A stretch of DNA of 32,191 nt from the NCBI GenBank assembly GCA_031286325.1, contig JAITUT010000015.1, forward strand, positions 1-32,191, in the 5' to 3' direction. The translations under genes were made by a program, and so were the position numbers. Shown here piece by piece: positions 6,926-26,486 of the stretch. Source of the DNA: Helicobacteraceae bacterium (GTDB lineage Bacteria > Campylobacterota > Campylobacteria > Campylobacterales > SZUA-545). The notes beneath the pieces are model-generated. The model was not told where the DNA came from and ran no database searches. It was given only the letters and a program-made list of their open reading frames with translations. The number at the start of each line of letters is the position of its first letter. Within the stretch, counting starts at the first letter, position 1.

Positions 6926-6942
6926 ATAGACAGGGGGTTAAA

Positions 6943-7308: not shown

Positions 7309-7310
7309 CA

Positions 7311-7610: not shown

Positions 7611-7957
7611 TTAGAGCTTCCATTGTTGTATCCTTGCTTGTCATCGCTATACTCTGCTGTTATATCGCCCATTTAACTAATGTCAATAGCGAATTGGAGA
7701 ACGAGCTTAAAGTATGTCAGAATAATTTGGCTATGGAGCGATCGTTAAATAGCAAATTACTTAAAGAAAGAGACGATGAAACCAACGAATGTATCTCAAA
7801 ATTACAAAAAGAGAATGAAAAGGTATTGCAAGCTCAGGAAATTATCGCTAGAATTAACGCGAAAAACGTCATTAAATTAGGTGATACGAAATGCAATGTG
7901 TCATTAAGCGAGGATAACTATATTTTAGGAAAATTAAATGAGCGGAACACTCGCTAA
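7595..7957 (+). CDS. Rz-like inner-membrane spanin
   Basis: This 120-residue protein has an N-terminal signal-anchor (about residues 7-27, ASIVVSLLVIAILCCYIAHL) followed by a periplasmic alpha-helical coiled-coil region (about 30-90, SELENELKVCQNNLAMERSL and following) that is rich in N, E, K and L. This is the i-spanin layout. AAGGG lies 8 nt before the ATG. The end of the gene overlaps the following lipoprotein gene by 20 nt, typical of Rz/Rz1 pairs, which fuse inner and outer membranes at the last stage of lysis. A C-terminal segment (GDTKCNVSLSEDNYIL) may pair with the partner. The call is by architecture. Confidence 0.6.
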   Translation: MFEQIIRASIVVSLLVIAILCCYIAHLTNVNSELENELKVCQNNLAMERSLNSKLLKERDDETNECISKLQKENEKVLQAQEIIARINAKNVIKLGDTKCNVSLSEDNYILGKLNERNTR

Positions 7958-8210
7958 AACTCTAAAAATTATGGGTATAGTAACTCTCATAGCAGTTTAT
8001 CTCCTTACTGCTGTCGGGTGTTCCGCTCCAAGCCCTAACTATGTGTATATTGACAAGAATTGCACAAAGTTTGACGAAGCTATAAAGGTAGAATGGAAAC
8101 CAGTAAGATGGGTAGTAATTCACACAGAGGGTATATCGTATTACGCTACGCCAGACGGAGAGACTTTACTAATGAACTTAGCTGTTATGAGAGGCAAGAA
8201 TGGACAATAA
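7938..8210 (+). CDS. Rz1-like outer-membrane lipoprotein spanin
   Basis: This 90-residue protein has a lipoprotein signal peptide: basic start, hydrophobic core (IMGIVTLIAVYLLT) and a lipobox AVGC with the cysteine at residue 28. The mature part (about 62 residues) has a Pro/Ser-containing start (SAPSPNY) and then a short charged domain. The 5' end is nested in the i-spanin gene and the 3' end overlaps the portal gene by 11 nt. It would be the outer-membrane half of the spanin complex. The lipobox -3 residue is Ala rather than Leu, which is tolerated but not ideal. Confidence 0.55.
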   Translation: MSGTLAKTLKIMGIVTLIAVYLLTAVGCSAPSPNYVYIDKNCTKFDEAIKVEWKPVRWVVIHTEGISYYATPDGETLLMNLAVMRGKNGQ

Positions 8211-10563
8211 ACCAAAAAAAATGACAAAAGAGTCTATATTAGCTATAGCGAAAGCCGACCTAACATCAACACAAACTCTTAGGAAAGAGCACGATACTTC
8301 TTTGAAGCAATACAGAGACGAGTATTACGGAAAGTTGTATGGGAACGAACACCCCCACAAATCTAAAATAATATCAAAGGACATACGCAGACAATCTGAA
8401 TGGCAAATTCCTAGTTTGGTTGATCCATTTGTCTCCACTTCCGACATATTTAAGATTGCTCCCGTTGGTAAAGACGATAGAAATGCCGCAAGACAAAAGG
8501 AGATACTGTTAAACACACAATTCTGTAGACAATTCAACAGGTTTAATTTCCTCACTACCGCTATAAAAATCGCCGATATAGAAGGCAGCGTAATAGTTCA
8601 GTTGGGGTGGGATTACCAAGAAAACTCTAAACGATTTACGAGATATGAGTTTATACTAGAAGATAACTCGCGAGTCAGCGTAGAGAGATACCAAGCCTTA
8701 CTCAATCAGAGCAAGCGAGAAGCCGAGATGATGGCTAACGAGATAGAACTAACTATGTTTAGAGAACGACAACAATTACAAGCACAGTTTCAACAGACAA
8801 CGCAACAAGCCCAACAACTACAAGCGCAAATGCGACAAGCCCAACAAGAGGGTAACGAAGAAGCTCTACAACAGCTGTCCCAGCAAGCTCAACAAATTGA
8901 ACAGGGCTTACAAGAAATGCAACAAGAACTACAACAACCAGTAGTTAAACCCGACAACTTCAATATGCCTATGCCTTTGGCGTTAGTAAGACAAGAAATA
9001 GAAGAAATAGAGGTATTAGTCAATAAACCAACAGCGAAAGTATGTAGGAATGAAGATGTGTTTATAGACCCTACTTGTCAAGGCGATTTAGATAAAGCCC
9101 AGTTTGTAATCAACAGGTATGAGACTGATTTATCCTCTTTGAGGTTGGACGGAAGATTTACTAACCTTGACAAAGTGGAAGAAGATTTAACCGATAGCAG
9201 TAACGACCCAGACGGATTTGAGACGCCAGACCACACGCATTTTAAGTTCTCAGATAAGACGCGCAAGAAAGTAGTAGTGTATGAATATTGGGGGAATATA
9301 GATTGGAATGGCGATAAAATTGCCGAACCGATAGTATGCGCTTGGGTAGGAGATGTAGTAATCAGGTTGCAGAATAACCCATACCCCGACAAAAAACACC
9401 CATTTATCCTATGTAAGTTCATAGAAACCCCTTTTAAGGTGTATGGCGAAGGCTCTGGCTCTTTAATAAGCGATGAGCAGAAGGTTAAAACCGCTTTGAA
9501 GCGAGCGTTAATCAATTATATTGCGGCTGGGACAGAGGGACAGATGGGTATTAAACAAGGAGCGTTAAGCCCAGATAATGAGAAGAAGTTCCTTCGTGGT
9601 GATAACTTCTCGTTTAACGGTAGCTCAAACGAGATATTCTTTTTTGGAAACTTCAATCAAATACCGCCGTCAGTATGGAACTTCTATAGTTTAATCACTA
9701 ACGAGATAGAGGCTATATCTGGGGTTAAATCGTTCGCTGAATCTGGCATATCAGGAAAAGGTTTAGGCTCTACGGCGACAGGAGCTAGAGGAGCATTGGA
9801 CGCTACAGCGTTAAGAAGGCTGCATTTGGTAAGAAACATCAGCGAAAATCTTGTTAAACCAATAGGTAGAAAGTGGTTGGTGTATAGCGCGGAGTTCTTA
9901 GACGATACGACTTTTATTCGTTATACGGACGAGGAAGTAATAGCGGTAACAAAAGATATGTTATCGGGCGAGTATGACATAGACATAGCCGTATCAACAG
10001 CCGAAGATAACGCTATGAGAGCGCAGGATTTATCGTTTATGTTGCAGACGACAGGTAATTCGCTACCGTTTGACTTCACTCAAATAATTCTAGCGGACAT
10101 AGCGAAACTATATAAAATGCCCGATTTGGCTAATAAAATAATGACATATACGCCTAAACCCGATCCAATGCAACAGAAGTTGCAAGAAACTCAACTCGCG
10201 TTACTTGAAGCTCAAGTAAGGAACGAACAAGCAAAAGGAGCGGAGAATGAAATAGATGTGAGCCTCAAACAAGCGAAAGCTGAGAAAGAGGCGGCAATGG
10301 CTAGGAAAATTGGCTCTGAAAGCAACCTACTTGACGATGAGTATTTAACTAAACAGATGGGAGAGACTATTGACCCTCTCAAAGTCCAAGAAATGCAGAA
10401 TAAGTATGACATAGAACAGGCGAAAGTCTTAAACGATATGAATTTCAAGCAAGAAAAGATGGATAGAGACGATCGTCAGAGAGAACTTGATAGAGAGGTT
10501 AAAGCGAGCGATACCTACTTAAAGCACAGACTAGAGGCGTTAAAACAGCATAAAGGATTGTAA
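8200..10563 (+). CDS. Phage portal protein (podovirus type)
   Basis: The portal is the dodecameric ring at one vertex of the head through which DNA enters and leaves. The 787-residue length and the order of conserved blocks fit large podovirus/P22-like portals: an N-terminal block with EWQIPSLVDPFVSTSDIFKI (about residues 68-87), a core with YEYWGNIDWNGD, HPFILCKFIETPFKVYGEGS (about 404-423), then NEIEAISGVKSFAESGISGK (about 503-522) and GARGALDATALRRLHLVRNI. The C-terminal 120 residues form a long charged helix, the expected barrel region. An unusual Gln-rich coiled-coil insert spans about 187-247. It starts 11 nt inside the o-spanin gene. Base use matches the other phage genes. Confidence 0.85.
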   Translation: MDNKPKKMTKESILAIAKADLTSTQTLRKEHDTSLKQYRDEYYGKLYGNEHPHKSKIISKDIRRQSEWQIPSLVDPFVSTSDIFKIAPVGKDDRNAARQKEILLNTQFCRQFNRFNFLTTAIKIADIEGSVIVQLGWDYQENSKRFTRYEFILEDNSRVSVERYQALLNQSKREAEMMANEIELTMFRERQQLQAQFQQTTQQAQQLQAQMRQAQQEGNEEALQQLSQQAQQIEQGLQEMQQELQQPVVKPDNFNMPMPLALVRQEIEEIEVLVNKPTAKVCRNEDVFIDPTCQGDLDKAQFVINRYETDLSSLRLDGRFTNLDKVEEDLTDSSNDPDGFETPDHTHFKFSDKTRKKVVVYEYWGNIDWNGDKIAEPIVCAWVGDVVIRLQNNPYPDKKHPFILCKFIETPFKVYGEGSGSLISDEQKVKTALKRALINYIAAGTEGQMGIKQGALSPDNEKKFLRGDNFSFNGSSNEIFFFGNFNQIPPSVWNFYSLITNEIEAISGVKSFAESGISGKGLGSTATGARGALDATALRRLHLVRNISENLVKPIGRKWLVYSAEFLDDTTFIRYTDEEVIAVTKDMLSGEYDIDIAVSTAEDNAMRAQDLSFMLQTTGNSLPFDFTQIILADIAKLYKMPDLANKIMTYTPKPDPMQQKLQETQLALLEAQVRNEQAKGAENEIDVSLKQAKAEKEAAMARKIGSESNLLDDEYLTKQMGETIDPLKVQEMQNKYDIEQAKVLNDMNFKQEKMDRDDRQRELDREVKASDTYLKHRLEALKQHKGL

Positions 10564-10667
10564 TGGATTTGAGTTGTATAGAAGACGATGTGATTAGGAA
10601 AGAGTATGAGAGGAACATTAAATTGGGAGAGGCTCTCAATAATTTGAAAGATAATTATCAGACCTAA
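10563..10667 (+). CDS. Small ORF of 34 residues between portal and terminase fragment
   Basis: The ATG overlaps the portal stop (TAATG), giving MDLSCIEDDVIRKEYERNIK and then 14 more residues, a charged helical peptide. It may be a genuine small phage protein or the fused remnant of a deleted neighbour, because the next frame is a terminase scrap lacking its own start. I recognise no family. Confidence 0.35.
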   Translation: MDLSCIEDDVIRKEYERNIKLGEALNNLKDNYQT

Positions 10668-10977
10668 TACCAATAAAATGGTGAGGTTTAGCGGGGTAGT
10701 TCCGTTGTTCAAGCAGCAGAAGATATTCTTCCCAACAGAGTTTAAGGATATGCCAATGATGAAAGAAGCTATAAACGAGATTTCATTCGCCACAGCTTCA
10801 GGCTTTAAGTCTAAGCACGATGATTTCATAGACACTATATCAATGTTGCAGTTTATTGAGGCTTGGAAACCGTATCCCGTTAAAGAAGAACCTATTCAAC
10901 AAAGTGATTATAATTATTACTTCGGGGACGATTTAGAGACAAGAAGGTTAGAAGAAAGAAAATCTACTGTGTTTTAA
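10648..10977 (+). pseudogene. Large terminase subunit, C-terminal nuclease-domain fragment
   Basis: The frame has clear similarity to the end of phage large terminases: KMVRFSGVVPLFKQQKIFFP, then a ...EI.FATASGFKSKHDDFIDTI segment that carries the conserved D-D-x-x-D of the RNase H-like nuclease domain. Similarity reaches upstream of the first ATG (10678) to a stop at 10645-10647, and no ribosome-binding site precedes that ATG. The ATPase domain, several hundred residues in a full terminase, is absent everywhere in the window. This is therefore a 5'-truncated gene, most likely left by a deletion that joined the region after the portal to the end of terminase. A short, separately translated nuclease domain is possible but less likely. 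Confidence 0.75.
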
Positions 10978-10990
10978 GTTAAGGACGACA

Positions 10991-12085
10991 ATGAAGCTAA
11001 AATATCTACTTGATATACTCAGAGCGGGAGAGTTAAAAAACTACTCAGATTCCGATCACGCCCAAAGCGATAAGATAGTATCCCAGCATATAAATTTAGG
11101 TCTTATAGAACTCGCTAAACGTTTTCAATTTTGGTATAAACAGGTGATTATAGACGCATCAGACGGAGAGATATTTTATAAGTTACCGAAAGATTTTCTA
11201 AATTTAGTATCAGTATTTAACTCTGATGGAAAACCAGTAGGAATAAACGAGGAAGGTTGGATTAACTCTGTGTTCCTCACATCTAAAAACATACTACAAG
11301 TTCCGTTCGCTACTGAGTTTATATCTGTTGTTTATAGAGCCTCTCCTCAAATTAGAGAAGAACATTGGACTGAAGATAGAGAAGAACTACACTTGATAAA
11401 CGCTAATTGGTTAGATGAACAGAGATTAGCTACTGGAGACCTTACGAGAACATTTGATTTTCCGAATATGAGTGTCAATATAGCTGCGGCTTCTTCTTAT
11501 TGGACAACCAATCTGGTAGTAAATGGTGTATCATATATGGATATAGATATTGGCGCCAGTTTTACCACAGACGAATCGCGTAGTCGTAAAATGCTTATAT
11601 CTGTATATGGTGATGGGGTTATTCTACCTATAGAGTATGAAAGTAAGGGTTATATAGCCGATTACTCCGCTAAGCGCGTGGATATTTCTTCGTTATTTCG
11701 TAACGATTCTGACGAAATATCAGTCATTAGGCTTGAAAGTGTTGATGGTGAGGGTTTTACTAGTTCAGATGGCTCAGATAGACCTACGATTAGCTGTAAG
11801 TTTTACAATATAGAAAACATAATAGAAGTAGGCGAATTAAACTGCGAGGTGATGATCCCTGACGCTCTTATAGAACCTCTTGGAGCGTATGTGGCTTGGA
11901 GAGCGAGTATGGCTAATATGGCTGTAGTTCCTAACGATAGTAAAACAATGTTTCAGTTCTTTGAGCAGACTTGTCAGAGGGTTAAAATGGATACCAGCGT
12001 TACCTCAGAAGGGTTGTGCTCGCATAGATTGTTCGCTGTTAAGAGAAAAGGTTATGACACACCTGTAAATTGGGAGGAATACTAA
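10991..12085 (+). CDS. Head-tail adaptor (connector) protein with an inserted domain
   Basis: The two ends look like a podovirus head-to-tail adaptor, the ring docked under the portal. The N-terminal part is helical (LINLGLIELAKRF-type segment, about 33-46), then DGEIFYKLPKDFLNLVSVF (about 58-76) and FISVVYRASP (about 110-119). The C-terminal part is MIPDALIEPLGAYVAWRASM (about 288-307). In simple adaptors these blocks lie close together. Here about 160 residues (126-286), rich in beta-type sequence (VSYMDIDIGASF, RKMLISVYGDGVILPIEY), separate them. An insertion exposed on the connector, perhaps immunoglobulin- or carbohydrate-binding-like, is inferred. It lies 13 nt after the terminase fragment and shares TAATG with the next gene. 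Confidence 0.65.
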   Translation: MKLKYLLDILRAGELKNYSDSDHAQSDKIVSQHINLGLIELAKRFQFWYKQVIIDASDGEIFYKLPKDFLNLVSVFNSDGKPVGINEEGWINSVFLTSKNILQVPFATEFISVVYRASPQIREEHWTEDREELHLINANWLDEQRLATGDLTRTFDFPNMSVNIAAASSYWTTNLVVNGVSYMDIDIGASFTTDESRSRKMLISVYGDGVILPIEYESKGYIADYSAKRVDISSLFRNDSDEISVIRLESVDGEGFTSSDGSDRPTISCKFYNIENIIEVGELNCEVMIPDALIEPLGAYVAWRASMANMAVVPNDSKTMFQFFEQTCQRVKMDTSVTSEGLCSHRLFAVKRKGYDTPVNWEEY

Positions 12086-12933
12086 TGAGTATGATGAATG
12101 TAACGAACGTCTTTCACGGCAGGAATAAAGAGAAGTGGGATATTTTAGAGCAAGTAGCGAAATTAAGCGGTAAACTTGAAGGTTTTACAGACGAGCAACT
12201 TAAAGCGTTTTTAGAGGGTTTGAGCAATATCGTTAAAGCTGGCGGTATCTTGAAGCAATTAGAGAACTTTGAGATATTTGTAGAGCATTTAGAGGACGGA
12301 GAACACCCATTTAGCAGAATGGACGGCAATAAACTTATTATTGGTATTCCAGCAGGTAGAGACGGTAAGGACGGCGAGAACGCTTTACCTATAGGGTTAA
12401 GGCTCGTGTATGACTCAAACACGGGGGACTTATACTATAAGAATGTATATACCGAGATTGATATAGACGATACTATAGAATTAAATACTAGGTCTAGAGT
12501 TGATTCTTTGGAGGCTTGTTGCGCCGAAGGCAAGGTGAAACTCGCTGATTTAGACGCGAAAGACGAAGAACACGAAGAAACACTAACAAACATCTTAGAA
12601 GCGTTAAATAGCCATAATGAATTGCTAGAGCTTCATAATCAGAAACTTGAACAACACACTAGAGAGCTGAACAATCAACAACGAAGGTTACGAGAGCATA
12701 GAGCAGAGCTGAAATCGCATAAAAACGCGCTGGATAATTACCAAACGACATTAAGCGAACACGAGGAGAGACTAAGCGATACTCAACTTGTCTTGAACGG
12801 TCATCAAGAAGGGTTAGATAACCATACAACAGAACTAAGCGGCATACAACTTACGCTGAATGAGTATCAAGACAAGATTGTCGCGTTGGAGACGCAGCTA
12901 GCGGAAGTCATAGAAAGATTAAACGAGGTGTAA
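12085..12933 (+). CDS. Phage coiled-coil structural protein with a collagen-like Gly-X-Y stretch
   Basis: The ATG at 12085 overlaps the adaptor stop, with GGGAGG just upstream, giving 282 residues. The N-terminal part is helical. A short collagen-like run GRDGKDGENA occurs at about 92-101. The C-terminal half (about 158-280) is one long coiled coil built of imperfect 14-residue units, seen as recurring H-N-x-x-L, H-x-x-x-L and L-x-x-H-x-x-x-L spacing. It is rich in H, N, Q, E and L. Such proteins form trimeric shafts or linkers of tail fibres. It lies directly before the large tail-fibre gene, so a proximal-fibre or hinge role is inferred. No enzymatic motif is present. Confidence 0.7.
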   Translation: MSMMNVTNVFHGRNKEKWDILEQVAKLSGKLEGFTDEQLKAFLEGLSNIVKAGGILKQLENFEIFVEHLEDGEHPFSRMDGNKLIIGIPAGRDGKDGENALPIGLRLVYDSNTGDLYYKNVYTEIDIDDTIELNTRSRVDSLEACCAEGKVKLADLDAKDEEHEETLTNILEALNSHNELLELHNQKLEQHTRELNNQQRRLREHRAELKSHKNALDNYQTTLSEHEERLSDTQLVLNGHQEGLDNHTTELSGIQLTLNEYQDKIVALETQLAEVIERLNEV

Positions 12934-12934
12934 T

Positions 12935-15913
12935 ATGGCAGATTTGAAATTTGTAACTAATTTGGCGGGTATAGTCAGGGCTTGTCTTGAGAGATATATG
13001 GTAGAGCAGTTCCCTAAATTCAAAGAGGAGACTCAGGAGAAAATTCTAAAGTATATGGAAGATAATAAAGAGAACTTCCGTTCTCGCGTCAAAGGCGACA
13101 AAGGAGATGACGGTCTTAATATCAAAACTATTAAGTGGATTAGCACTACCGATCCGTTAAACAGACAAGCAGTATCAGGCTATACAGATACTTACTCAGT
13201 CATCGCCGCTGATGATTCTGTTCTTGGGAATATCAAAATCCACAACGGTAAAGACACTCTCGTAGATGATAACGGTCAGGTGCATATCAATAACTCTACT
13301 GAAATTCAAGGGAATTTTCTGTTGAAGGGACTGTGGGCTTTCTTAGAGGTTGAGGAGTTCTCATTATCTACTCAATGGGTGAATTTGAATATGTATAAAG
13401 AGGAGAAACCGTTTGAGGGTGGTATCCGCTTCAATACAGACGCTAATGGCGATGAGTTCTTCGCAAGACTTACATATAAACAGGCAACCGACAGCTGGTA
13501 TATCACAAAAGACGGTCAAGACGTTCTTATAATGTGCGGCGGGTTGGATACTTACAATGAAAACGGCTTCGTAGTAGTTGACAAAGACAATAGAGAGTTA
13601 TCAAGACTACAAGGGCAAGGTATAGCCTATCAAGACAAACGAGACGACACAACTAAAGCTATTGACGATACCAATAATCAAAGCAAGTTTCTAACAGCGG
13701 GAGATACTCCAGACGCTATTCCACAGTTCAGAAACCTACGGAAAGCAGAAGTCTTTACAGCGTTGGACGTTACTACGATTGTAGAAGAAGCGGAGATTAT
13801 TAGCGAGGACAAAACTCTTAAAACTCGCGTATTACACAGCGATAAAGAGGGAACTCACACAGAGACTATTACTCAAATTCCTTTGGCTAAGAGCGGTTCT
13901 TTCAACGGCGATGGGTATGAAGGAGACACAGACGGATTATTGAGCAAGGAGAGAAGCAGACAGATAGATGTTATGCAGAGCGAACTTAATGTAGTGAAAA
14001 GATTGCCTAAACGCTATCCTGTTAGGATTGGATTGCCTCCTGACGGTGGATTTACACAAGAACAATTGAATGGTTTCTATCAAGAGCTTGTTGATACTGG
14101 TAAAGCTCCAGAGACTATCGCTGATGGAACTGTATTAGACAACATTGACGAGGAAGAAGGCGGTTCGTTTGGCGTAGAGTATATGTATTACGCGACAGTA
14201 GACCAATGGATAAACAGAGGTATCTCCACTATCACATTGCCTACTGAGACTGCTCTTGGAGGAGTATTCACTTCTAACGAGTATCTTAAGGGCGAGTGTT
14301 CAGCAGGAGTTATATCTATCAACGGGCTGTCTGATAAGTTGGATAGTATTGACGAAAAGAACGATGAGCAAGACCAGAAGATAACTGATATTGAGGCTAA
14401 TATAGACGAGATTGAGGACAATGTAAGCGGCTTGACTGATAGGATTGATGTTGTGGAGAATACTATAACCACTATAGGAGGCAACATTACTAATTTTGTT
14501 CCAGCTCTTGTAGTTGACAAAGACAATCCTAATAACCGCAGTTATATTTATAATTCAGCACAAATGGCATTTCTCAATAATGAAACCGAACGCCCGTCCC
14601 ATACCTCAAACTCAGCCGTAGTTGCGGCGCCCAGTTCCGTCTTTCTTGCCTACTATCTTAGTGGTATTGACGGTGAGAGGTCTAATATGGTTACAGTAGA
14701 CGGCTATAAAACACGCTTCAACATTTATCATAAAGAAGATGGCGTAGTTACAGAGAGATACTGCACAATAGGAACAACCTACGGCGAATCAAACGATATT
14801 GTAACTAAGAGAGAACTAGACGCAGCAATAATGGGAGTCTCTCAAGGTATTGACGGTAGTAGCGGTAGCGGCACCACTGATTATGGGCAACTAACCAATA
14901 AGCCTAGTATAAATGGTGAAGAACTAGTTGGCGATAAGAGCTCTGACGAACTTAATCTTGTTCAGAGCGATATTAGATACGGACACGAGTTAAATGGGAG
15001 TTTTAACGGCACAGTAAGTAGTATTTCTAGACACTTACAAGGGACGACTATTAGCGCAAGTAAAACAATTAATGGGACTGAAACGTCAAGTTCGCTATTT
15101 GTATATAAGGAGGCGATACAGATTTTCACTAAATATAGAGTTTCTGATTCTAATGACGACCAAAACTTAAGCAGAAATTACATTTTTAGTCCTAGCTTTG
15201 GTAGTAATGACGATGTAACTACAAAGAAAGATGTTGATGGAATGATAACCGAAGGTGTTAGGTCGGCAGTTCAAGAGGCATTACAGACTGCTGGATATGT
15301 TCCAACAGGACTGGTCGCTCCAAGCGGGGTTGATCAAGACGGTTATTATCCGACTACTATGATAGTTCACGACCAAAACAGTAGCATAGGAGTTAAAACA
15401 GGAAATATAAACCAATCAACGCCTGAAGCTACTATCCTTATGGAAGTATCACAGCCTCTCAAAGTTTTCTATACTGAAGATGATAACTCTCTTATTGAGT
15501 ATAAATTTGATGGTAAATGCGCGTTTGAGAAGCATAGTTGGGACGGTAATAGTTGGTTTAGCGGCGATAACAGCGTAGTTCAGGCAAAAGACCTAAATGA
15601 CGCCTATCAGAAGTGCGTAAAGAAAGATCACATACGCGGTAGTGAGGAATCAGGCAACTATTCTTACTATCACATCAGCCCATTAGGAGACGGTGGTGGT
15701 CTCGGTATTGAAACGGGTAGGTATTGGGACGATGGTGAGACTCATTTCAGTAGAGAGATGACGATAAGAGCAGGAAACGGTGATGACGACAACGGCTACA
15801 GATACGACAGCGACATACCTATTAAGAAAGACATAGATCAGATCGTAGCGGGGCTTAATCAGAGGATTGATACGTTAATGCAGATGATAGAGCAACTTCA
15901 GGCTAACCCATAA
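12935..15913 (+). CDS. Phage tail fibre protein
   Basis: This 992-residue modular protein starts 1 nt after the previous stop. It has a short N-terminal helical attachment region, a collagen-like KGDKGDDG at about 53-60, long repetitive beta-rich sections, a coiled coil at about 463-515 (LDSIDEKNDEQDQKITDIEA and following) and the tail-fibre signature YGQLTNKPSINGEELVGDKS at about 646-665. Three repeated modules close with a related motif: NDIVTKRELDAAI (about 620), NDDVTTKKDVDGMI (about 758) and DSDIPIKKDIDQIV (about 958). The C-terminus is a trimerising-type helix (LNQRIDTLMQMIEQLQANP). It should form the receptor-binding fibre. The 3' end overlaps the convergent integrase gene by 11 nt. 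Confidence 0.85.
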   Translation: MADLKFVTNLAGIVRACLERYMVEQFPKFKEETQEKILKYMEDNKENFRSRVKGDKGDDGLNIKTIKWISTTDPLNRQAVSGYTDTYSVIAADDSVLGNIKIHNGKDTLVDDNGQVHINNSTEIQGNFLLKGLWAFLEVEEFSLSTQWVNLNMYKEEKPFEGGIRFNTDANGDEFFARLTYKQATDSWYITKDGQDVLIMCGGLDTYNENGFVVVDKDNRELSRLQGQGIAYQDKRDDTTKAIDDTNNQSKFLTAGDTPDAIPQFRNLRKAEVFTALDVTTIVEEAEIISEDKTLKTRVLHSDKEGTHTETITQIPLAKSGSFNGDGYEGDTDGLLSKERSRQIDVMQSELNVVKRLPKRYPVRIGLPPDGGFTQEQLNGFYQELVDTGKAPETIADGTVLDNIDEEEGGSFGVEYMYYATVDQWINRGISTITLPTETALGGVFTSNEYLKGECSAGVISINGLSDKLDSIDEKNDEQDQKITDIEANIDEIEDNVSGLTDRIDVVENTITTIGGNITNFVPALVVDKDNPNNRSYIYNSAQMAFLNNETERPSHTSNSAVVAAPSSVFLAYYLSGIDGERSNMVTVDGYKTRFNIYHKEDGVVTERYCTIGTTYGESNDIVTKRELDAAIMGVSQGIDGSSGSGTTDYGQLTNKPSINGEELVGDKSSDELNLVQSDIRYGHELNGSFNGTVSSISRHLQGTTISASKTINGTETSSSLFVYKEAIQIFTKYRVSDSNDDQNLSRNYIFSPSFGSNDDVTTKKDVDGMITEGVRSAVQEALQTAGYVPTGLVAPSGVDQDGYYPTTMIVHDQNSSIGVKTGNINQSTPEATILMEVSQPLKVFYTEDDNSLIEYKFDGKCAFEKHSWDGNSWFSGDNSVVQAKDLNDAYQKCVKKDHIRGSEESGNYSYYHISPLGDGGGLGIETGRYWDDGETHFSREMTIRAGNGDDDNGYRYDSDIPIKKDIDQIVAGLNQRIDTLMQMIEQLQANP

Positions 15914-16994
15914 TCCCATTCAATAGCTCCGATACCGCGTTTCTCTTAATTTTACTCGCTGGTTTCACATACCTCTCTGTCATAGATAGAGAGGAGTGAT
16001 CCATTAACTCTTTTATTATAAAGGGAGACACTCCATTATTAGCCAAGTTACTACCGAATGAATGTCTTAGAGAATACGCTACTATCTTATTCTTTCTATC
16101 GTCCTTGTGTATGCCTCTTGGTATGTTGAATAGCGTATCAAGGCGCTTTTGTAGCTTTTTCGGTTGAGTGTTTCTGTCCTGTGGTTTATCCTTATTACCA
16201 ACTACATAATGGTATGGTTTTATATGTCTAATCATACTTATTAAGATTTCACAGACTTTATCGTCAAAGTAGGCATAGTATCCTCGTGATACCTTATGAT
16301 TTTGCAGTCTTATAGTCCTAGTTGCGAAGTCTATATCCATTGGTCTAATGGACAACACAGTCGCCACTCTAGCTCCTGTTGCAATGGACAGCAGGGTAAA
16401 CAGATATAAGTCATTGTTGTATCTCACAGTATTTAATAGTTCATTACACTCCTCTAAACTCAATACTCCTACTCTTTTATTGTCTATTTTTCTTTTCTTA
16501 ATATTTGCGAGAGGGTTCTTGTTAATTACTCCTTTTTTAATAGCATAGTTATAGACAGACTTTGCGAGCGTTATAATGTGATTTATGGTCGTGTTGGATA
16601 GTCTCTTTTCCTTTTCTCTTAATATCGTTTCTAGCATAGTTTCTGTGATACTGTGAGCGGGGTATTTAAGAAGCTTAGATAAGTGTTTAGACCTGTATAT
16701 ATCGTGTTTCACATCTTTTTTTGTATAGGCATAATCTAGATACGATTTAAGAATGTCGCTAAATAGTAGGGATTTCTTTAGTGTTGGTGTTTCACCGCGT
16801 CTGATTAGATGTAGTTTTTCATTTCTTAAGTCTCTACAATACGCTTCTCTTATACCTGATGAGTATGTTCCAACCCTTTCTAGCACTTGTTTCTTGCCTA
16901 TACGATATTTAATATAGTAGGTGGTCTCTCCGTCCTCTGATTTACGCTTATATACCCCAGCAACGCTGGTCTTGACTAGGTTTGTTGAACTCAT
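15903..16994 (-). CDS. Tyrosine recombinase (phage integrase)
   Basis: This 363-residue integrase catalyses site-specific integration and excision between attP and attB. Catalytic residues are visible: Arg in ATGARVATVLSIRPMDID (about 209), the box II segment AYSLRHSFGSNL (about 308-319, Tyr in place of the usual His before L-R), DHSSLSMTERYVKP with the second His (about 332) and the nucleophilic Tyr (about 341). The N-terminal third holds a SAM-like DNA-binding domain (DILKSYLDYAYTKKDV). It is transcribed opposite to all other phage genes, with its 5' end facing the right attachment region, the normal place for attP. The ATG at 16994 is 15 bp from a TATAAT. Confidence 0.93.
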   Translation of the reverse strand: MSSTNLVKTSVAGVYKRKSEDGETTYYIKYRIGKKQVLERVGTYSSGIREAYCRDLRNEKLHLIRRGETPTLKKSLLFSDILKSYLDYAYTKKDVKHDIYRSKHLSKLLKYPAHSITETMLETILREKEKRLSNTTINHIITLAKSVYNYAIKKGVINKNPLANIKKRKIDNKRVGVLSLEECNELLNTVRYNNDLYLFTLLSIATGARVATVLSIRPMDIDFATRTIRLQNHKVSRGYYAYFDDKVCEILISMIRHIKPYHYVVGNKDKPQDRNTQPKKLQKRLDTLFNIPRGIHKDDRKNKIVAYSLRHSFGSNLANNGVSPFIIKELMDHSSLSMTERYVKPASKIKRNAVSELLNGIMG

Positions 16995-19784: not shown

Positions 19785-21650
19785 TCAAATCGCGCGTTCC
19801 AAAATGCGCGATAATCTTTCGCCGAAATCAGCGGGGTTTTTGATCGTTAATCCCGCCGAAAGCTGCGCTTGATCCAGCAAAATAAACGAAATATCCGCGA
19901 TCAGCGATTCGTCTTCTAACGATCCGATCTTCTCAATAATTTTGTGCGTAGGGTTTAACTCCAAAATCGGCTTAACTTCGGGCAAATTATCCATACCCAT
20001 TAGCTTAAAAGTCTGTTGCATTTGCGCCGTCGGATCGTTTTCGTCTATCACCAGATACGCCGCGCTTTCACCCAGCCGCTTGCTGACTTTCACATCTTTC
20101 ACCGCCTCGCCAAGCGCCTTTTTGACCTTTTCTTGCGCGGGTTCGGCGGCTTTCATCGCATCCTCGCTCTGCGTTTGGGGCAAATCCTCGTCCGCGCCGC
20201 TGCGATTTATCGCCTTGATCGCCAAGCCCTTGTAGTCCGCGATCTGACCTAGCACAAACTCGTCAATCTCGTCGTCCATAATCAAGACTTCAATTCCCTG
20301 CGCCTTGTAACTTTCAAGGAGCGGCGAGTTGCGCAAAATCGCCTCGTTAGCGCCCGAAATGTAATAGATCGCCTTTTGATCGGGCTTCATTCGCGCTTTA
20401 TAATCCGCGAAGCCCGCGAAACCCTCAACCGCGCTGCTTTTGTAGCGTACGAGCTCTAGCAACTCCTCGCGATTGGCGTAATCTTGATACAAGCCCTCTT
20501 TTACGCACCGCCCAAATTCGCGCGAGAAAGCGGCGAATTTTTCTAAATCCGCCGCGAGTTTCGTAATTTCGGCAAGAATTTTTTTGACGGAGGCGGATTT
20601 AATGTTCGCCAGAATTTTGTTCTGCTGCAAAATTTCGCGGCTCACATTGAGCGGCAAATCCTCGCTGTCTATCACGCCGCGCACGAAGCGCAAATAAACG
20701 GGCAAAAGCTCTTTGTCTTTGTCGGTGATAAAAACGCGTTTCACATAGAGTTTCACGCCGCCTTCGTAATCCGCGCGGAACAAGTCCATAGGCGCTTTCG
20801 CGGGGATAAAAAAGAGCGTGGTGTATTCCATCGCGCCCTCCGCGTGAGTGTGGATTGTCGCCATTGGTTCGCCGCTGTCGTGGCTGAGCGCGTGGTAAAA
20901 CTCCTGATATTCTTCGGGTTTGATCGTAGATTTTGCGCGCTTCCAGAGGGCGGTCGCGGCGCCGATTTGATCGCGCTTGGCGGTTTTGCCCGTCTCGTTG
21001 CCCTTGTCGTCGTGTTCGGCTTGCTCGTAGTTCAAGAAAATCGGGAACGGAATGTGGTTTGAATACTTTTTGATTGTGCTTTCGAGCGTCCAGCGGTTGG
21101 CGAACTCTTTGGCGTCATCTTTGAGCGCGAGGCGGATCGTGGTGCCGAAAGTTTCGCGGCTCGCCTCCTCGATCGCATACTCGCCCTTGCCGTCGCTAGA
21201 CCACTTCCACGCCTTTTCCTCGCCGGCTTTGCGCGAAATGACGCTGATTTCGTCCGCAACCATAAACGCCGAATAAAATCCCACGCCGAATTGTCCGATC
21301 AAATTTGAATCGCGCTTGTGATCGCCGGTGAGTTTGGCGACAAAGTTTTTCGTGCCGCTTTTGGCGATCGTGCCCAAGTTTTCGACGAGGTCCTGATCGT
21401 TCATTCCGATACCGCTGTCGCTGATTTCGAGCCACTTGCGATCCGCGCCGTCAAAATTGATCTCAACGCGCGGCTCAAAGGCGATCTGTTTGTAGCCGTC
21501 GTCGCTGACGGTTAGGAATTTGAGTTTGTCCAGCGCGTCGCTGGCGTTGCTGATTAACTCGCGCAGAAAAATTTCTCGGTGCGAGTAGAGCGAGTGGATC
21601 ATCAGATCCAAGAGTTGATTTACTTCGGTTTGGAAAGAATGTTTAGACAT
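19785..21650 (-). CDS. htpG: Chaperone protein HtpG (Hsp90)
   Basis: This cytoplasmic ATP-dependent chaperone homodimer has 621 residues, the normal length. The N-terminal GHKL ATPase domain shows ELISNASDALDKL, DSGIGM and GQFGVGFYSAFMVADE; the middle domain includes LYVKRVFITD and RFVRGVIDSEDLPLNVSRE; the C-terminal dimerisation domain follows. The start MSKHSFQTEVNQLL at 21650 has AGGAG 5 nt upstream and is preferred over a start 19 codons upstream. An extended -10 (TTTTGCTAATAT) lies at 21682-21693. It is transcribed away from the SPOR-protein gene. The strand downstream is non-coding and shows no clear T-run terminator. Confidence 0.97.
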   Translation of the reverse strand: MSKHSFQTEVNQLLDLMIHSLYSHREIFLRELISNASDALDKLKFLTVSDDGYKQIAFEPRVEINFDGADRKWLEISDSGIGMNDQDLVENLGTIAKSGTKNFVAKLTGDHKRDSNLIGQFGVGFYSAFMVADEISVISRKAGEEKAWKWSSDGKGEYAIEEASRETFGTTIRLALKDDAKEFANRWTLESTIKKYSNHIPFPIFLNYEQAEHDDKGNETGKTAKRDQIGAATALWKRAKSTIKPEEYQEFYHALSHDSGEPMATIHTHAEGAMEYTTLFFIPAKAPMDLFRADYEGGVKLYVKRVFITDKDKELLPVYLRFVRGVIDSEDLPLNVSREILQQNKILANIKSASVKKILAEITKLAADLEKFAAFSREFGRCVKEGLYQDYANREELLELVRYKSSAVEGFAGFADYKARMKPDQKAIYYISGANEAILRNSPLLESYKAQGIEVLIMDDEIDEFVLGQIADYKGLAIKAINRSGADEDLPQTQSEDAMKAAEPAQEKVKKALGEAVKDVKVSKRLGESAAYLVIDENDPTAQMQQTFKLMGMDNLPEVKPILELNPTHKIIEKIGSLEDESLIADISFILLDQAQLSAGLTIKNPADFGERLSRILERAI

Positions 21651-21681
21651 AAAAGCTCCTTTGGCGGATTTTGAAAGCCGT

Positions 21682-21699
21682 ATATTAGCAAAAGTTGAT
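21682..21699 (-). promoter_or_regulatory. Extended -10 promoter of htpG
   Basis: The minus strand reads ATCAACTTTTGC followed by TAATAT, a TG-containing extended -10 element 32 bp before the htpG ATG. The 12-mer ATCAACTTTTGC recurs upstream of the flavoprotein gene at 32043-32054, also next to a -10-like TAAAAT. No heat-shock CIRCE palindrome is seen. Confidence 0.45.
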
Positions 21700-21782
21700 A
21701 TAAACACACTAAATCTTTTGATCGCAAACTAGCGCTCGTCGATCGCGATTGCCAAAGATCGCGCTCAAAAGAACAAAATATG

Positions 21783-22306: not shown

Positions 22307-22500
22307 AGGTAGTTTAAGCGCGAGCAACGCCGCCTTAGCATAATGCCAAACGCGCCGCTAAGAGGATATTGGACTTTGGGGGACAACCTCAAGGAACATT
22401 TTGCATTGGTTCGCTTAACAGACGAAATAGAATGTTTTTTAACGCATGTGAGATTGCTACCGCCATTGCGCAAAACCGCACGTTATCTGTCGTTTTTTCT
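22307..22500. other. Short non-coding junction between host DNA and the AT-rich island
   Basis: No gene is visible. Host-like sequence (to about 22345) gives way to AT-richer DNA. It contains a 35-bp fragment (22450-22484) related to the repeats at 25553-25623 and 25829-25899. Confidence 0.6.
22450..22484 (+). repeat. Fragment of the 71-bp island repeat
   Basis: The segment GCTACCGCCATTGCGCAAAA, then CCGCACGTT, aligns with the end of the two longer copies at 25553-25623 and 25829-25899 with few mismatches and in the same orientation. It lies 16 bp beyond the 3' end of the methyltransferase gene. Confidence 0.55.
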
Positions 22501-24414
22501 TTAAACAACTTTAAACACAATATTTTCCAGTTGATTTTTAAATTCTTGTTTCAATTCAAACGCTTTTTTGATTTGGTTACTAATGATCTCTTTTTCACCA
22601 TTAAAAGGTATATAAATTTTAATATTTGCCAAATCGATATCCGAAACATTGGGAATTGCCGCTCCTGTGCGGTACATAAACATTTGTTTTAAAAATTCTT
22701 CGGTATGCAAGTAATATAGAAGATAGTAAGGGTCAATTTTGCAATTTCGCAAAACACGAAAACCGTTTGTGCAAATACATCCTTCGTATTCTTTTGAAAC
22801 AAATGCTGTTGCGTGTTTTTTTGTGCCGACAGAATTTCCCGCAATAGCAGTGATAATATCACCCTCTTTGAGTTCATAACTTGCCCGGCTTGGCAATTCA
22901 TGAACGCTATAAGTGGTTGAATTTATGATTTCAAACGAAAGGGTGTTTATGTCGGAAAGCTCCACATATTCAACGGTTTGTTTTACATTTTTAAGTTTTG
23001 GTGATTTGAATTTTACAATATCGCAAAGTTCTCCTAATCTTACCGTTTTACCATTTTTCAATACTTTTGCAAAAACCTTGTTTTCGGGCGAATAAAAATC
23101 AAAATCAAATCTACCTTTTAATTCTTTGTAATTTATTGAAAATGAATTATTTGCTGTTGCAACGCCTGTTTGTTGGAACAGCCTATATTGTTCTGCAACT
23201 TCGCTAAAATTTTCATCTAAAACCGCCCGATTATTTATTTTTAGAATTTGTCCGTATGAGTCTTTTTTATAAACGGGCGTTCCATTTTTATTACCTTGAT
23301 AACCAAGTTTAGTTACTTTTCCAAAAAATACAGGGTACTCTTTTTCAATATTTTGTGTATCTTTTTCTAAAAACAAAATAGAAGTTTTTACACCTGTTCC
23401 ATACGGAATAAATGTTTCCTGTGGCAATTTTATAACGGCTAATAGCTTGGATTTCTGTTTGATATAAAAACGCAAATATTCCAAACTCGGATTTTCAAAA
23501 TTGCCGTTTGGCAACACAATGCCCATTCGTCCACCCTCTTTCAACAATTTCAAACAACGCTCAATAAACAGGATTTCAGCGTTTTGTGTCGTTTGCAACG
23601 TTTTTGTTTTGCAAAACTCATTTTCGCGCTTTGCCCATTTGTAACCCAAATCAAACTTTGAAAAGAGTTCGGAGTCTGTAATTTTTGCACCAAAAGGCGG
23701 ATTTGCCAAAACCAAATCAAATGCATTATTCAAAGTTTCAAAATTTTCTAATGAATTTAAACAGAACACATTAGTTTTTACATTTGCTTCTAAAAGCAAT
23801 TTCATTTTTGCAATTCTCAAAATGCTTTTATTTATATCAAAACCAAACACATTTTCAGAAACAACATTTTGAAATTTAATATTTTGATTCTTTTTTTGCA
23901 AATATTTTAACGCCGACATCAAAAAACCGCCACTGCCGCAGGCAGGGTCTATAATTTTTTCATTTGGTTTTGGTTGCATCATCTCAACGCAAAAATCAAT
24001 CACAGGTTCGGGCGTAAAAAACTGACCTTGACGCTCTTTTTCGTGGTGGGAAAGGAATTTTTGAAACGCCAAGCCTTTGGCATCTTGCGAAGAATCAACA
24101 AGCGAAATATTTTGTAATTTATTAGTTATAAAATGGACAGCACTTTCGGAAAGTCTAATTTTCTCGTCTATTTCAAAAATTTCGGGAAAATCTTTTTTGG
24201 TTTTTTCAAACAATTCTGTAATATTTTGCTCTGAAAACAGATTTAGATTATTGTTCTCGTCAAAAATTTTGACAAACAAAAATTTAATAAACTCTTCAAG
24301 TGCTTGTTGTGGCGAAAGTCCATCGTTTGCGTAGATATAATCATGAATTTCTTCAAACCTGCGCAAAAGATTATCTTGTTTTGAAAGCGGTATGTCAAAT
24401 AACATAGTTTCCAT
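22501..24414 (-). CDS. Fused N6-adenine DNA methyltransferase and specificity (HsdM-HsdS-like) protein
   Basis: The 637-residue protein joins an HsdM-type methyltransferase to one HsdS-like target-recognition half. An N-terminal helical domain (about 1-125) is followed by QGQFFTPEPVIDF (motif X, about 129-141), DPACGSGGFL (AdoMet-binding motif I, about 156-165) and NPPFG (catalytic motif IV, about 238-242). Residues about 435-637 look like a single target-recognition domain plus coiled helix (RLGELCDIVKF, ending in KKAFELKQEFKNQLENIVFK). It should methylate adenine in a host-protective sequence and also provide specificity. Its start overlaps the nuclease gene stop (TAATG), so the two are coupled. 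Base composition is much lower in G+C than in the flanking host genes, suggesting transfer. Confidence 0.9.
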   Translation of the reverse strand: METMLFDIPLSKQDNLLRRFEEIHDYIYANDGLSPQQALEEFIKFLFVKIFDENNNLNLFSEQNITELFEKTKKDFPEIFEIDEKIRLSESAVHFITNKLQNISLVDSSQDAKGLAFQKFLSHHEKERQGQFFTPEPVIDFCVEMMQPKPNEKIIDPACGSGGFLMSALKYLQKKNQNIKFQNVVSENVFGFDINKSILRIAKMKLLLEANVKTNVFCLNSLENFETLNNAFDLVLANPPFGAKITDSELFSKFDLGYKWAKRENEFCKTKTLQTTQNAEILFIERCLKLLKEGGRMGIVLPNGNFENPSLEYLRFYIKQKSKLLAVIKLPQETFIPYGTGVKTSILFLEKDTQNIEKEYPVFFGKVTKLGYQGNKNGTPVYKKDSYGQILKINNRAVLDENFSEVAEQYRLFQQTGVATANNSFSINYKELKGRFDFDFYSPENKVFAKVLKNGKTVRLGELCDIVKFKSPKLKNVKQTVEYVELSDINTLSFEIINSTTYSVHELPSRASYELKEGDIITAIAGNSVGTKKHATAFVSKEYEGCICTNGFRVLRNCKIDPYYLLYYLHTEEFLKQMFMYRTGAAIPNVSDIDLANIKIYIPFNGEKEIISNQIKKAFELKQEFKNQLENIVFKVV

Positions 24415-25379
24415 TATCCATCGATTATTAGATTTCTATTATCAATTTGCATATCATATTCATTAACAGCGTTTTCAGTTAACAATGTTGCATAAACATC
24501 AGCAAAATTATCAAACCATTCGTCAGTTAAACCCAATTTTAAAGAGCCGTCTGTTTGCGGAAAAACAAAGCCCATAATGTAATTTTGCTGTAAATGTTCG
24601 GCATCTTCGCCCGAAGATTCCAATTGATTTGGATTTGCAAAAACAAACTTGTGTTCATCAAAACGCAGTACAATATCAATTGAAATAGCGTTAAATTCGT
24701 TTTTTCGCGGCGTTGCTTGTGTTCTTTCGCTCGAACCCGAAACGCCAGAAACAAAGTGAGTTTCCAGTACTCGAATTTTAGACATCAGATATTCGAGCCT
24801 TTCATTTATCATATCGCCAATTTCATCGCGAGAATAAACACTCAATGCTGTTATTGCGCGTGATTTATCGGTTTCTCTTGTGCGGTTCTGTTTGTTATAT
24901 TTTTGAATTTCTTCGTAATCGTAAAGAGATTCTTTGTATTCATTCAAAAATTTAGGCAAATTGGCTGTTATCCAATCAATATTTTGTTTTTCAATGTCTT
25001 GTGATTTATCAATCCACGGTAATTTTTCAGAATGGGCATATAAAAACTTTTTCAGATTGTCATAATTGTATAGTTTGTGCCATTTTTCTGAGTTTGATTT
25101 TACGCCTTTCGACTCTAAAACAAACCATTCGTTTGTGTCATTTTTGCGGAAATAAAAATCACCGTGGTGATTGGAGTGTTTTTTGCCTTCCCATTTTTCG
25201 CGAATACGCTTTACTTCGTAATCCAAATTTTCCAAGTGTTGCTTGAGTAGTAATTCTGTGATAGAGCCATTTACATAGCCTTGTGCATTTGGACTCATTT
25301 TCAATGCAGCTAAAAATACCTCCAAAGTTGTTTTGAAAGTTTTAAGTACAAATGCTTCTAATTTTTGAAATATTGTCAT
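24414..25379 (-). CDS. Restriction endonuclease subunit, PD-(D/E)XK type
   Basis: This 321-residue protein is encoded directly upstream of, and overlapping, the methyltransferase-specificity gene. A PD-(D/E)XK active site is visible: GDFYF with Asp74, then 14 residues, then LESKG with Glu89 and Lys91, plus an upstream helix glutamate (Glu42 in GSITELLL). The rest (about 150-321) is helical then beta-rich and may handle dimerisation or contact with the M-S partner. No ATPase or helicase motifs are present, so it is not a type I HsdR. The pair thus resembles a two-subunit type II system with separate R and fused M-S. The nuclease role is inferred from this motif and the neighbour. It starts with ATG 29 bp from a Bacteroidota-type -7 box. 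Confidence 0.78.
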   Translation of the reverse strand: MTIFQKLEAFVLKTFKTTLEVFLAALKMSPNAQGYVNGSITELLLKQHLENLDYEVKRIREKWEGKKHSNHHGDFYFRKNDTNEWFVLESKGVKSNSEKWHKLYNYDNLKKFLYAHSEKLPWIDKSQDIEKQNIDWITANLPKFLNEYKESLYDYEEIQKYNKQNRTRETDKSRAITALSVYSRDEIGDMINERLEYLMSKIRVLETHFVSGVSGSSERTQATPRKNEFNAISIDIVLRFDEHKFVFANPNQLESSGEDAEHLQQNYIMGFVFPQTDGSLKLGLTDEWFDNFADVYATLLTENAVNEYDMQIDNRNLIIDG

Positions 25380-25407
25380 ATATTTATTCTTTGTTGTTTA
25401 TAGGTTG

Positions 25408-25415
25408 CAAAGATA
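25408..25415 (-). promoter_or_regulatory. Bacteroidota-type -7 promoter box (TATCTTTG) for the restriction-modification operon
   Basis: The minus strand reads TTGTATCTTTGCAACC, matching the TAnnTTTG -7 consensus used by the primary sigma factor of Bacteroidota, placed to give a leader of about 20 nt before the ATG at 25379. The -33 TTTG box is not clear. Host promoters in this window look different (TAATAT/TAAAAT). Confidence 0.55.
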
Positions 25416-25552
25416 CAATTTTTCTTTGGAATAAATGTCTGAAAATTTGAGTTTCCAATTTGTTTCATTTTCCGCTGTTCTGTTCCAAAATGATAGATAA
25501 CGTCCAGCGGCTTTGCGCTGTGGCGGCTTCCACTGAGATTGCATCGGCGTAC

Positions 25553-25623
25553 GGGCGGGAGCTTGCAATTAAGCATTGCCGCATCTGCGGGATTACCGCC
25601 GCCATTTCGCAAAATCGCCCGTT
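25553..25623 (+). repeat. 71-bp island repeat, copy 1
   Basis: By my alignment 58 of 71 positions match the copy at 25829-25899 without gaps. Conserved cores are GCAATTAAG, TCTGCGGGAT and CGCCCGTT. A third, partial copy lies at 22450-22484. Confidence 0.75.
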
Positions 25624-25682
25624 GCGCGAAACCATACTGTGTTGCGCCGCGCATTATGATCTCCTTAATAAAGACGATAGAG

Positions 25683-25735
25683 AATTTTACAGAATTAAAG
25701 CTTAAGCCAAACAGCGAAATTTCTCTAATAATTAA
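25683..25735 (+). repeat. Direct repeat upstream of the 4Fe-4S gene block (left arm)
   Basis: It starts AATTTTAC, contains AAAGCTTAAG and ends TAATAATTAA. The same words occur in the same order at 26442-26486, on the other side of the DUF4405-like gene, with an 8-bp gap. Confidence 0.55.
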
Positions 25736-25935: not shown

Positions 25936-26403
25936 TCATATTATTTTGTTTGTTTCAACGAAAACTCCGTAAGGACAAATCTGAATACACTTTTTACAAC
26001 CAATACAATTTGCGCCGTTTCGGATTATAATATGTTTGTGCCACAAAAAGCTGACTTTGCCTATCACCTGTTTAGGACAAACATTGATACATTCCCAACA
26101 GGCTTTACAGTTTTTCGTATTTGTCAAAATGATGCTTTCTCTATTTTTCGGGTTAATCCGCGTTTCATTATTTTTGCCTATCCAATAATGTTTCAATACC
26201 CTCCAATTGTAAACGATATGATAAATACCAACAACCATAAATATCGCTCCAAACAACACATGAATGTGCAACCAATTATGGCTTGTTTCCGTTCCATGCG
26301 TTACATGAATATAAACTGCGCTAGTCGGCATCATAATAAAAGTTGCCAAAAGCATTAACGAAACGATTTTTCGTTTGTTGACTGTTTTTGTTATTGTTTC
26401 CAT
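25936..26403 (-). CDS. DUF4405-like membrane protein with a C-terminal 2x[4Fe-4S] ferredoxin domain
   Basis: The 155-residue protein has two membrane segments (about 12-32 and 46-66) carrying several histidines (His33, His36, His42, His46, His48, His62) placed as possible heme ligands. A cytoplasmic ferredoxin domain follows with two C-x2-C-x2-C-x3-C-P clusters: Cys99/102/105/109 (CKACWECINVCP) and Cys133/136/139/143 (CIGCKKCIQICP). This suggests electron transfer between a membrane quinol or heme pool and a soluble partner. The start is ATG at 26403 with AAGGAAAAG upstream. Base composition is AT-rich like the restriction genes and unlike trpF next door, so it was probably acquired. The DUF4405 assignment is from its two-TM, histidine-rich layout. 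Confidence 0.75.
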   Translation of the reverse strand: METITKTVNKRKIVSLMLLATFIMMPTSAVYIHVTHGTETSHNWLHIHVLFGAIFMVVGIYHIVYNWRVLKHYWIGKNNETRINPKNRESIILTNTKNCKACWECINVCPKQVIGKVSFLWHKHIIIRNGANCIGCKKCIQICPYGVFVETNKII

Positions 26404-26441: not shown

Positions 26442-26486
26442 AATTTTACCAAACCAAAGCTTAAGTAAAACCTCTTTAATAATTAA
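26442..26486 (+). repeat. Direct repeat beyond the 4Fe-4S gene block (right arm)
   Basis: It matches 25683-25735: AATTTTAC, AAAGCTTAAG and TAATAATTAA in the same order and orientation. Together the two arms bracket about 700 bp including the ferredoxin gene. Confidence 0.55.

What the first reader, a model, noticed from the sequence alone, without database searches (positions are those of the whole stretch)
22501..25415. Two-gene restriction system with a Bacteroidota-type promoter in a different host
The R gene is preceded by TATCTTTG at the correct distance, matching the TAnnTTTG -7 box of Bacteroidota, and both genes are far more AT-rich than the flanks. The host promoters seen here differ. 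This points to recent transfer across phyla. If the promoter is poorly read in the new host, expression may depend on other signals.
Basis: partly seen in the sequence, partly recalled or inferred. Interest (0 to 1): 0.5.

Follow-up and report, generated by a model that had tools for sequence, protein, structure and literature searches.

The report
Transferred restriction system on a cassette
A relative of Campylobacter appears to have picked up a two-gene DNA-cutting defence system from the gene pool of gut Bacteroidota, probably as an integron-type gene cassette that still carries its old promoter but now also sits behind a promoter of the new host.

Summary
R (24414-25379, -) and M (22501-24414, -) overlap by one base, have 32-34% GC against 52-56% for host genes, and TATCTTTG lies 28 nt before the R start codon. 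The host is Campylobacterota by rpoB. None of 396 other sampled genomes of its phylum has R. The nearest R proteins (81-85%) are in Bacteroidales MAGs, probably from termite guts, and DNA homology with one of them runs through the promoter box. The box precedes R in 10 of 18 Bacteroidota relatives and 1 of 32 others. Transfer across phyla is well supported; "recent" and a single direct donor are not, since the nearest M is from a spirochaete MAG. A Chitinophagaceae relative holds the same pair between two complete attC sites. No integron integrase was found in the host genus. A host-type promoter and ribosome site lie upstream, and its reading frame ends on the R start codon. Function, target and transcription are untested.

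The parts
22501..24414 (-). M: N6-adenine DNA methyltransferase (N6_Mtase, NPPF) with one C-terminal type-I-S-like target-recognition domain
   Evidence: Pfam PF02384 5.4e-44; structures of type I M proteins over 110-353 and S subunits over 456-621; alignment of 19 M proteins
24414..25379 (-). R: 321-aa putative restriction endonuclease, PD-(D/E)xK fold, no family in the libraries searched
   Evidence: no hit in Pfam, PADLOC, NCBIfam or PHROGs; E42, D74, E89, K91 invariant in 35 rows; AlphaFold2 pLDDT 87.5, VIA Z 11.8 to I-Ssp6803I, 7.7-9.1 to Hjc
25408..25415 (-). TATCTTTG, Bacteroidota-type -7 box; predicted start about 25403
25432..25435 (-). TTTA, weak candidate for the -33 element (consensus TTTG)
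   Evidence: read from the sequence against the consensus
25493..25629 (-). attC_B: attC-like hairpin 113 nt before the R start; its GTT (25501-25499) would be the left end of the RM cassette
   Evidence: top window hit of two covariance models built without window rows: 12.8 bits E 0.13, next 12.3 and 17.4 bits E 0.018, next 11.1; fold (not more stable than shuffles)
22447..22492 (-). attC_A: 5' half of an attC-like site just after M; AGATAAC at 22488-22482 is the complement of GTTATCT at the other end
   Evidence: repeat family D1 and inverted pair I9; motif scan; homologous to the attC 5' half after M in L013
25829..25907 (-). attC_C: 5' half of a third attC-like site, after the ferredoxin gene
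   Evidence: 82% identical to attC_B over 71 nt (D2)
25637..25735 (-). host-type leader: TGTAAAAT promoter-like box, AAGGAG ribosome site and ATG (25654), reading towards R
   Evidence: matches five other places in the host genome; three of the genes behind them were scanned and all three are TPR proteins; alignment
25376..25654 (-). 92-codon open frame from the host-type start codon through attC_B to a TGA that overlaps the R start codon (ATGA)
   Evidence: open in 90 of 5000 shuffles with the frame kept
25936..26403 (-). AT-rich 4Fe-4S/DUF4405 gene, possibly a second foreign cassette
   Evidence: Pfam, GC 0.344, lies between attC_C and another leader copy
26442..26486 (-). second copy of the promoter part of the host-type leader, before the ferredoxin gene

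Best explanation
A two-gene type II-like restriction-modification system: M probably methylates adenine at a site read by its own recognition domain, and R, a PD-(D/E)xK nuclease, probably cuts the same site when unmethylated. The operon is an integron-type gene cassette from the gene pool of gut Bacteroidota that carried its own Bacteroidota promoter into a Campylobacterota genome. There it ended up behind the promoter and ribosome site of a host TPR-gene leader, from which it may be transcribed through attC_B, with translation of R, then M, coupled by overlaps (ATGA, TAATG). Shown by sequence: the genes, the host phylum, the nearest relatives, the shared promoter box, the attC-like repeats and the leader copies. 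Inferred: cutting, methylation and common target, entry as a cassette by an integrase supplied in trans or with a larger piece of an array, and which promoter works now.
For: Transfer: rpoB; 1 of 397 phylum genomes, the host itself, has R; R clade with three Bacteroidales MAGs, 100/100; M in a clade of five, 100; composition; flanks belong to the genus (HtpG in 5 of 6, TrpF in 4 of 6 other genomes). Promoter. Host promoter. Nuclease and methyltransferase.
Against: No integron integrase over cut-off in any of 7 genomes of the host genus. attC_A and attC_C lack their 3' halves. The first attC model put attC_B first by only 0.5 bits, E 0.13, and the hairpin is not more stable than shuffles. The inverted pair I9 at the ends is one of 34 such pairs in that 5.3-kb region. 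The motif patterns were written after seeing the window and L013. My own attC scorer did not separate most loci from shuffles. End complementarity of 4 or more is only a little more frequent in true flank pairs (6 of 46) than in swapped ones (157 of 2070). The core letters do not fully fit the textbook RYYYAAC/GTTRRRY (recalled). The open frame was noticed after the fact. Foldseek gave no hit at E 0.001 or better for R. No methylation, cutting or transcript data exist here.
Confidence: 0.58

Rival explanations
1. Plain horizontal transfer of the operon from a Bacteroidota (transformation, phage or plasmid) with no integron step; the attC-like repeats are local hairpins of another origin.
Against: attC_B is the best window hit of both relatives-only models; downstream homology with L013 runs into its attC; ends are complementary; the motifs are absent from 5 shuffles of 681 kb.
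Confidence: 0.27
2. The immediate donor was a gut spirochaete (or another phylum) that had it from Bacteroidota.
For: M of L053 (Spirochaetes MAG) is the nearest, SH-aLRT 99; L060 (Planctomycetaceae MAG) lies in the same clade. Their R were too broken for the R tree, so that tree cannot speak on them.
Against: DNA homology with L053 stops at the R start codon and it lacks the TAnnTTTG box, while homology with L010 (Prevotellaceae) runs through the box; the R pieces of L053 are 67-73% identical, those of L060 82%, against 85-86% for L009.
Confidence: 0.2
3. Assembly or binning artefact: a Bacteroidota piece joined to a Campylobacterota contig.
For: The genome is an assembly of 96 contigs with no 16S found, and the island is AT-rich.
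Against: Host genes on both sides of the island in one contig, host-type leader copies inside the region, completeness 98 and contamination 0.04; protein divergence of 15-20% from the nearest sampled copies.
Confidence: 0.06
4. TATCTTTG is a chance match and the operon has always been read from other promoters.
For: 22 TAnnTTTG in the window; weak -33; 1.2% chance in shuffled upstream; a host-type promoter exists upstream.
Against: 10 of 18 Bacteroidota relatives against 1 of 32 others have the box; homology with L010 through the box.
Confidence: 0.12

Closest known systems
Type II systems with a type I-like methyltransferase and half-S recognition (AhdI/type IIH; recalled, no call)
   Same: N6-adenine M of type I kind with one recognition domain, separate nuclease
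   Different: M and recognition domain fused; R is in no family searched; target unknown
RM.BsaXI (8w0p) and type I HsdM/HsdS structures
   Same: M core and recognition-domain similarity
   Different: no nuclease fused to M; R is 321 aa, too short for an HsdR-type translocase
MADS MAD2 methyltransferase (NF047738)
   Same: related M core, 307 bits
   Different: far under the cut-off of 720; M also matches MAD5 weakly, R matches no MADS model
I-Ssp6803I homing endonuclease / Hjc resolvases
   Same: PD-(D/E)xK fold match to the R model
   Different: sequence identity 8-15%; fold only
Restriction-modification cassettes in Xanthomonas integrons (PMC12444791, passage seen)
   Same: defence genes carried as integron cassettes
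   Different: here a Campylobacterota without integrase, and a cassette with a promoter of another phylum
Integrons shared between bacteria and archaea (PMC9668308, passages seen)
   Same: cassettes and CALINs crossing large taxonomic distance
   Different: no restriction system described in the passages seen

Membership tests
Type II-like restriction-modification system | adenine methyltransferase motifs with a recognition domain | tested here: met
   PF02384, NPPF invariant in 19 rows, S-like C-terminal domain
Type II-like restriction-modification system | adjacent nuclease with catalytic residues | tested here: met
   PD-(D/E)xK fold and invariant E42, D74, E89, K91; activity not tested
Type II-like restriction-modification system | R and M act on the same sequence | not testable with these tools
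   needs methylome and digestion
Bacteroidota sigma-ABfr promoter | -7 box TAHHTTTG | tested here: met
   TATCTTTG 25415-25408
Bacteroidota sigma-ABfr promoter | -33 box TTTG | tested here: not met
   TTTA at 25435-25432
Bacteroidota sigma-ABfr promoter | transcript start 5 nt after the box | not testable with these tools
   no RNA data
Integron gene cassette | attC with paired arms between AAC and GTT | tested here: inconclusive
   attC_B E 0.13 and 0.018 in relatives-only models; stability not above shuffles
Integron gene cassette | left end complementary to the inverse core of its own attC | tested here: met
   GTTATCT / AGATAAC (I9); own pair scores 4, reached by 1 of 90 swapped pairs
Integron gene cassette | complete attC at the 3' end | tested here: not met
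   attC_A has only its 5' half
Complete integron | IntI integrase | tested here: not met
   0 of 7 genus genomes over cut-off
MADS | MAD2 equivalog score | tested here: not met
   307 of 720 bits

The most novel reading that the evidence does not exclude
A promoter-carrying restriction-modification cassette that moves through integron arrays among many phyla, keeping a phylum-specific promoter as a trace of where it last lived. In this Campylobacterota it was captured behind a host leader outside any integron, so that a foreign defence system is now translated by coupling to the start of a host gene.
Probability: 0.35. Interest if true: 0.65.

Novelty: new variant of a known kind. Interest (0 to 1): 0.48.

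Why it matters
A restriction system must be expressed in the right order in a new host, yet Bacteroidota promoters differ strongly from those read by ordinary sigma-70 (passage of PMC6847099). A cassette whose old promoter and new host promoter are both visible makes it testable how a defence system stays alive when it jumps between phyla. It would also add a Campylobacterota to the traffic of integron cassettes, and it points to an unannotated nuclease family (54 loci) paired with conserved recognition domains, a possible source of new restriction enzymes.

Tried and rejected
Integron integrase in the host genus: none over cut-off. The tyrosine recombinase 15903-16994 scores 38 bits against a cut-off of 265 for IntI. 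Further attC_B copies in the host genome: none convincing at E up to 10 (next best E 0.13 over 21 nt). attC_B against plasmids: no match. R in phages: none; in viral contigs: none; in plasmids: one, a Thermus plasmid with the same operon. A coding reading of the 71-nt repeat was given up: in 30 relatives' genomes its module was found well only at this locus (other hits fall in the leader part or have E 0.08 or worse). My anchored hairpin scorer and the all-loci end-complementarity test did not discriminate and are not used as support beyond the window and L013. 16S for naming the host: not found, so rpoB was used. HtpG alone was misleading for the host phylum (60-61% to spirochaetes, 56% to Campylobacter). 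R against PHROGs: no family. Fold search: families not listed are not excluded. Sigma-70 consensus scan: 12 found, 13.4 expected, no help. Papers holding integron, restriction-modification, cassette, Treponema and phyla together: 0.

Rows dropped: R tree 46 of 56 rows (240 aa or longer; L053 and L060 are among those left out), M tree 49 of 54 (500 aa or longer; L009 is left out, its M frame breaks after 37 residues). In the promoter count the window, L008, L052, L056, L060 and L062 are left out; four loci of unnamed phylum count as 'others', and the single positive among the others (L050) is one of them. L056 is Bacteroidota and has the box.

Full report
Observation. The two genes, their overlap and the TATCTTTG box are as described. 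R has GC 0.340 and M 0.324, against 0.519-0.556 for seven host genes in the window. TAnnTTTG is common in the window (22 sites), so I tested it by relatives and not by the motif alone.

Host. The window is contig C51 of a 2.05-Mb assembly (98% complete). Its rpoB is 81% identical to a same-genus genome, 68% to the Campylobacter MAG that holds L052, 47% to a Nitrospiria and 41% to a Bacteroidales, so the host is Campylobacterota. Its habitat is not known from any call. R is absent (E 0.001) from the 396 other genomes sampled in the phylum. Flanking HtpG is found in 5 of 6 other genomes of the genus at 72-77% and TrpF in 4 of 6 at 62-64%, so the contig is the host's own. In three same-genus stretches of 9-10 kb around TrpF only TrpF and its neighbour were found of 15 window proteins sought; R, M and the ferredoxin gene are not there.

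Relatives. One scan of genome contigs gave 54 loci (159 pattern matches, 55 confirmed). They span bacteria of many phyla and two archaeal genomes; most are MAG contigs, so single assignments may be wrong. A Thermus plasmid has the same operon. In the R tree (46 rows) the window joins L009, L010 and L011, all Bacteroidales MAGs, with support 100/100. In the M tree (49 rows, quick method) it pairs with L053, a Spirochaetes MAG (99), inside a clade with L010, L011 and a Planctomycetaceae MAG, L060 (100). L053 and L060 have broken R and are not in the R tree. Sample codes Gsp477 (L060) and Kf353 (L041) are termite metagenomes (passages of PMC11707648). The codes Nc350, Cd354 and Th196 look like the same kind of series, so that L009-L011 and L053 are probably from termite guts; this is inference. 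Campylobacterales MAGs from termite guts exist (passage of PMC9137090). The only campylobacterial relative (L052) has R at 43% with an M-like gene on the other strand.

Promoter. A TAnnTTTG box within 60 nt of the R start is present in 10 of 18 Bacteroidota loci and 1 of 32 others (Fisher 3.8e-5; loci are not independent). DNA homology with Prevotellaceae L010 extends about 47 nt upstream of the R start and includes TATCTTTG in both; with spirochaete L053 it stops at the start codon. The box therefore came with the genes, most simply from a Bacteroidota. The consensus -33/-7 TTTG/TANNTTTG, revised to TAHHTTTG, was read in passages of PMC6847099. The window's -33 region has only TTTA.

Cassette. 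Three related repeats lie around the operon. Read in operon direction, attC_B (25629 to 25493) ends in GTTATCT before the operon, and attC_A begins with AGATAAC just after M: the complementary ends expected of an integron cassette. By itself the inverted pair is one of 34 in that region, so it counts only for its place. In Chitinophagaceae L013 the same operon lies between two complete attC sites within an array, one 150 nt before R and one 18 nt after M, and homology between window and L013 runs on into the attC after M. A covariance model from five attC of L013 and L046 ranks attC_B first in the window, narrowly (12.8 bits, E 0.13; runner-up 12.3). A model from 14 attC of relatives ranks it first clearly (17.4 bits, E 0.018; runner-up 11.1). 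Neither contained window rows. By eye, L018, L022, L033, L038, L047 and L058 also show cassette-like ends; this was not scored, and over all 46 loci with both flanks the ends are complementary only slightly more often than swapped ones (6 of 46 against 157 of 2070 at 4 or more). True IntI occurs in 2 of 21 relatives' genomes, those of L033 and L046, and in 0 of 7 of the host genus. So the window holds at most an integrase-less remnant: one full and two half attC. Insertion of cassettes into ordinary genome sites (attG) is described in a paper that I saw only as an entry in the reference list of PMC11389934.

Expression in the new host. A leader at 25735-25637 shares a TGTAAAAT box, AAGGAG and ATG with five other places of the host genome, with small differences. 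Three of the genes behind these were scanned and all three are TPR proteins. A copy of the promoter part also precedes the ferredoxin gene. From the start codon at 25654 a 92-codon frame runs through attC_B and ends in TGA overlapping the R start (ATGA). Shuffles keep it open in 90 of 5000 with the frame fixed, about 0.6% with frame choice; this was noticed after the fact. I infer that the host promoter can serve the operon, with coupling of R and M; no RNA data exist here.

Proteins. M has a type I-like N6-adenine domain and one S-like recognition domain, so it probably reads a split palindrome as a dimer (inference). R has no hit in Pfam, PADLOC, NCBIfam or PHROGs. Its model (pLDDT 87.5) matches I-Ssp6803I at Z 11.8 over 144 residues and Hjc resolvases at 7.7-9.1 (the tool warns that Z of 7 to 8 is common for models without a clear match), with invariant E42, D74, E89 and K91 over 35 sequences. 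Foldseek alone gave nothing at E 0.001 or better.

Known or new. Restriction systems among integron cassettes are known in Xanthomonas (passage of PMC12444791), and cassette traffic between domains is known (passages of PMC9668308). What I did not find in the listings of my searches is a restriction cassette carrying a phylum-specific promoter into Campylobacterota; most subscription papers are not in that library. I rate it a new variant of a known kind.

Noticed in passing
5852-16994: Phage-derived module with an SU10-type portal (8200-10563), an adaptor match just under its cut-off (10991-12085) and a tyrosine recombinase (15903-16994), GC about 0.36-0.42.
   Followed up: no
25936-26403: AT-rich 4Fe-4S/DUF4405 gene between a half attC and a copy of the host-type promoter; perhaps a second captured cassette.
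   Followed up: partly
L064:1420-1516, L065:1268-1299: Two of the host leaders are followed by a perfect 5-bp repeat (19.4 and 6.4 copies) right after the start codon; a length change would shift the frame, so these genes may be phase-variable.
   Followed up: partly
L033-L038, L040, L045-L051, L058: R is 52-65% identical to the window's, but M only 33-37%; R is the better conserved partner, the reverse of what is usual.
   Followed up: no
L025, L053, L054, L055, L059, L060, L061: R is truncated or frame-broken while M is intact in the assemblies, as in decaying restriction systems; assembly errors are possible.
   Followed up: no
L052:1-2015: A Campylobacter MAG has a distant R (43%) with an M-like gene on the opposite strand.
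   Followed up: no
19788-21707: HtpG is closer to Treponema and spirochaete MAGs (60-61%) than to a Campylobacter MAG (56%), yet shared in the genus (72-77%); an older transfer is possible.
   Followed up: partly
L018, L022, L032: A second subclade of the same R-M pair in a Treponema and two Bacteroidales MAGs (L018 and L022 share the sample code Cd354); L018 and L022 have GTTATG/CATAAC-type ends by eye, perhaps Treponema-type cassettes.
   Followed up: partly
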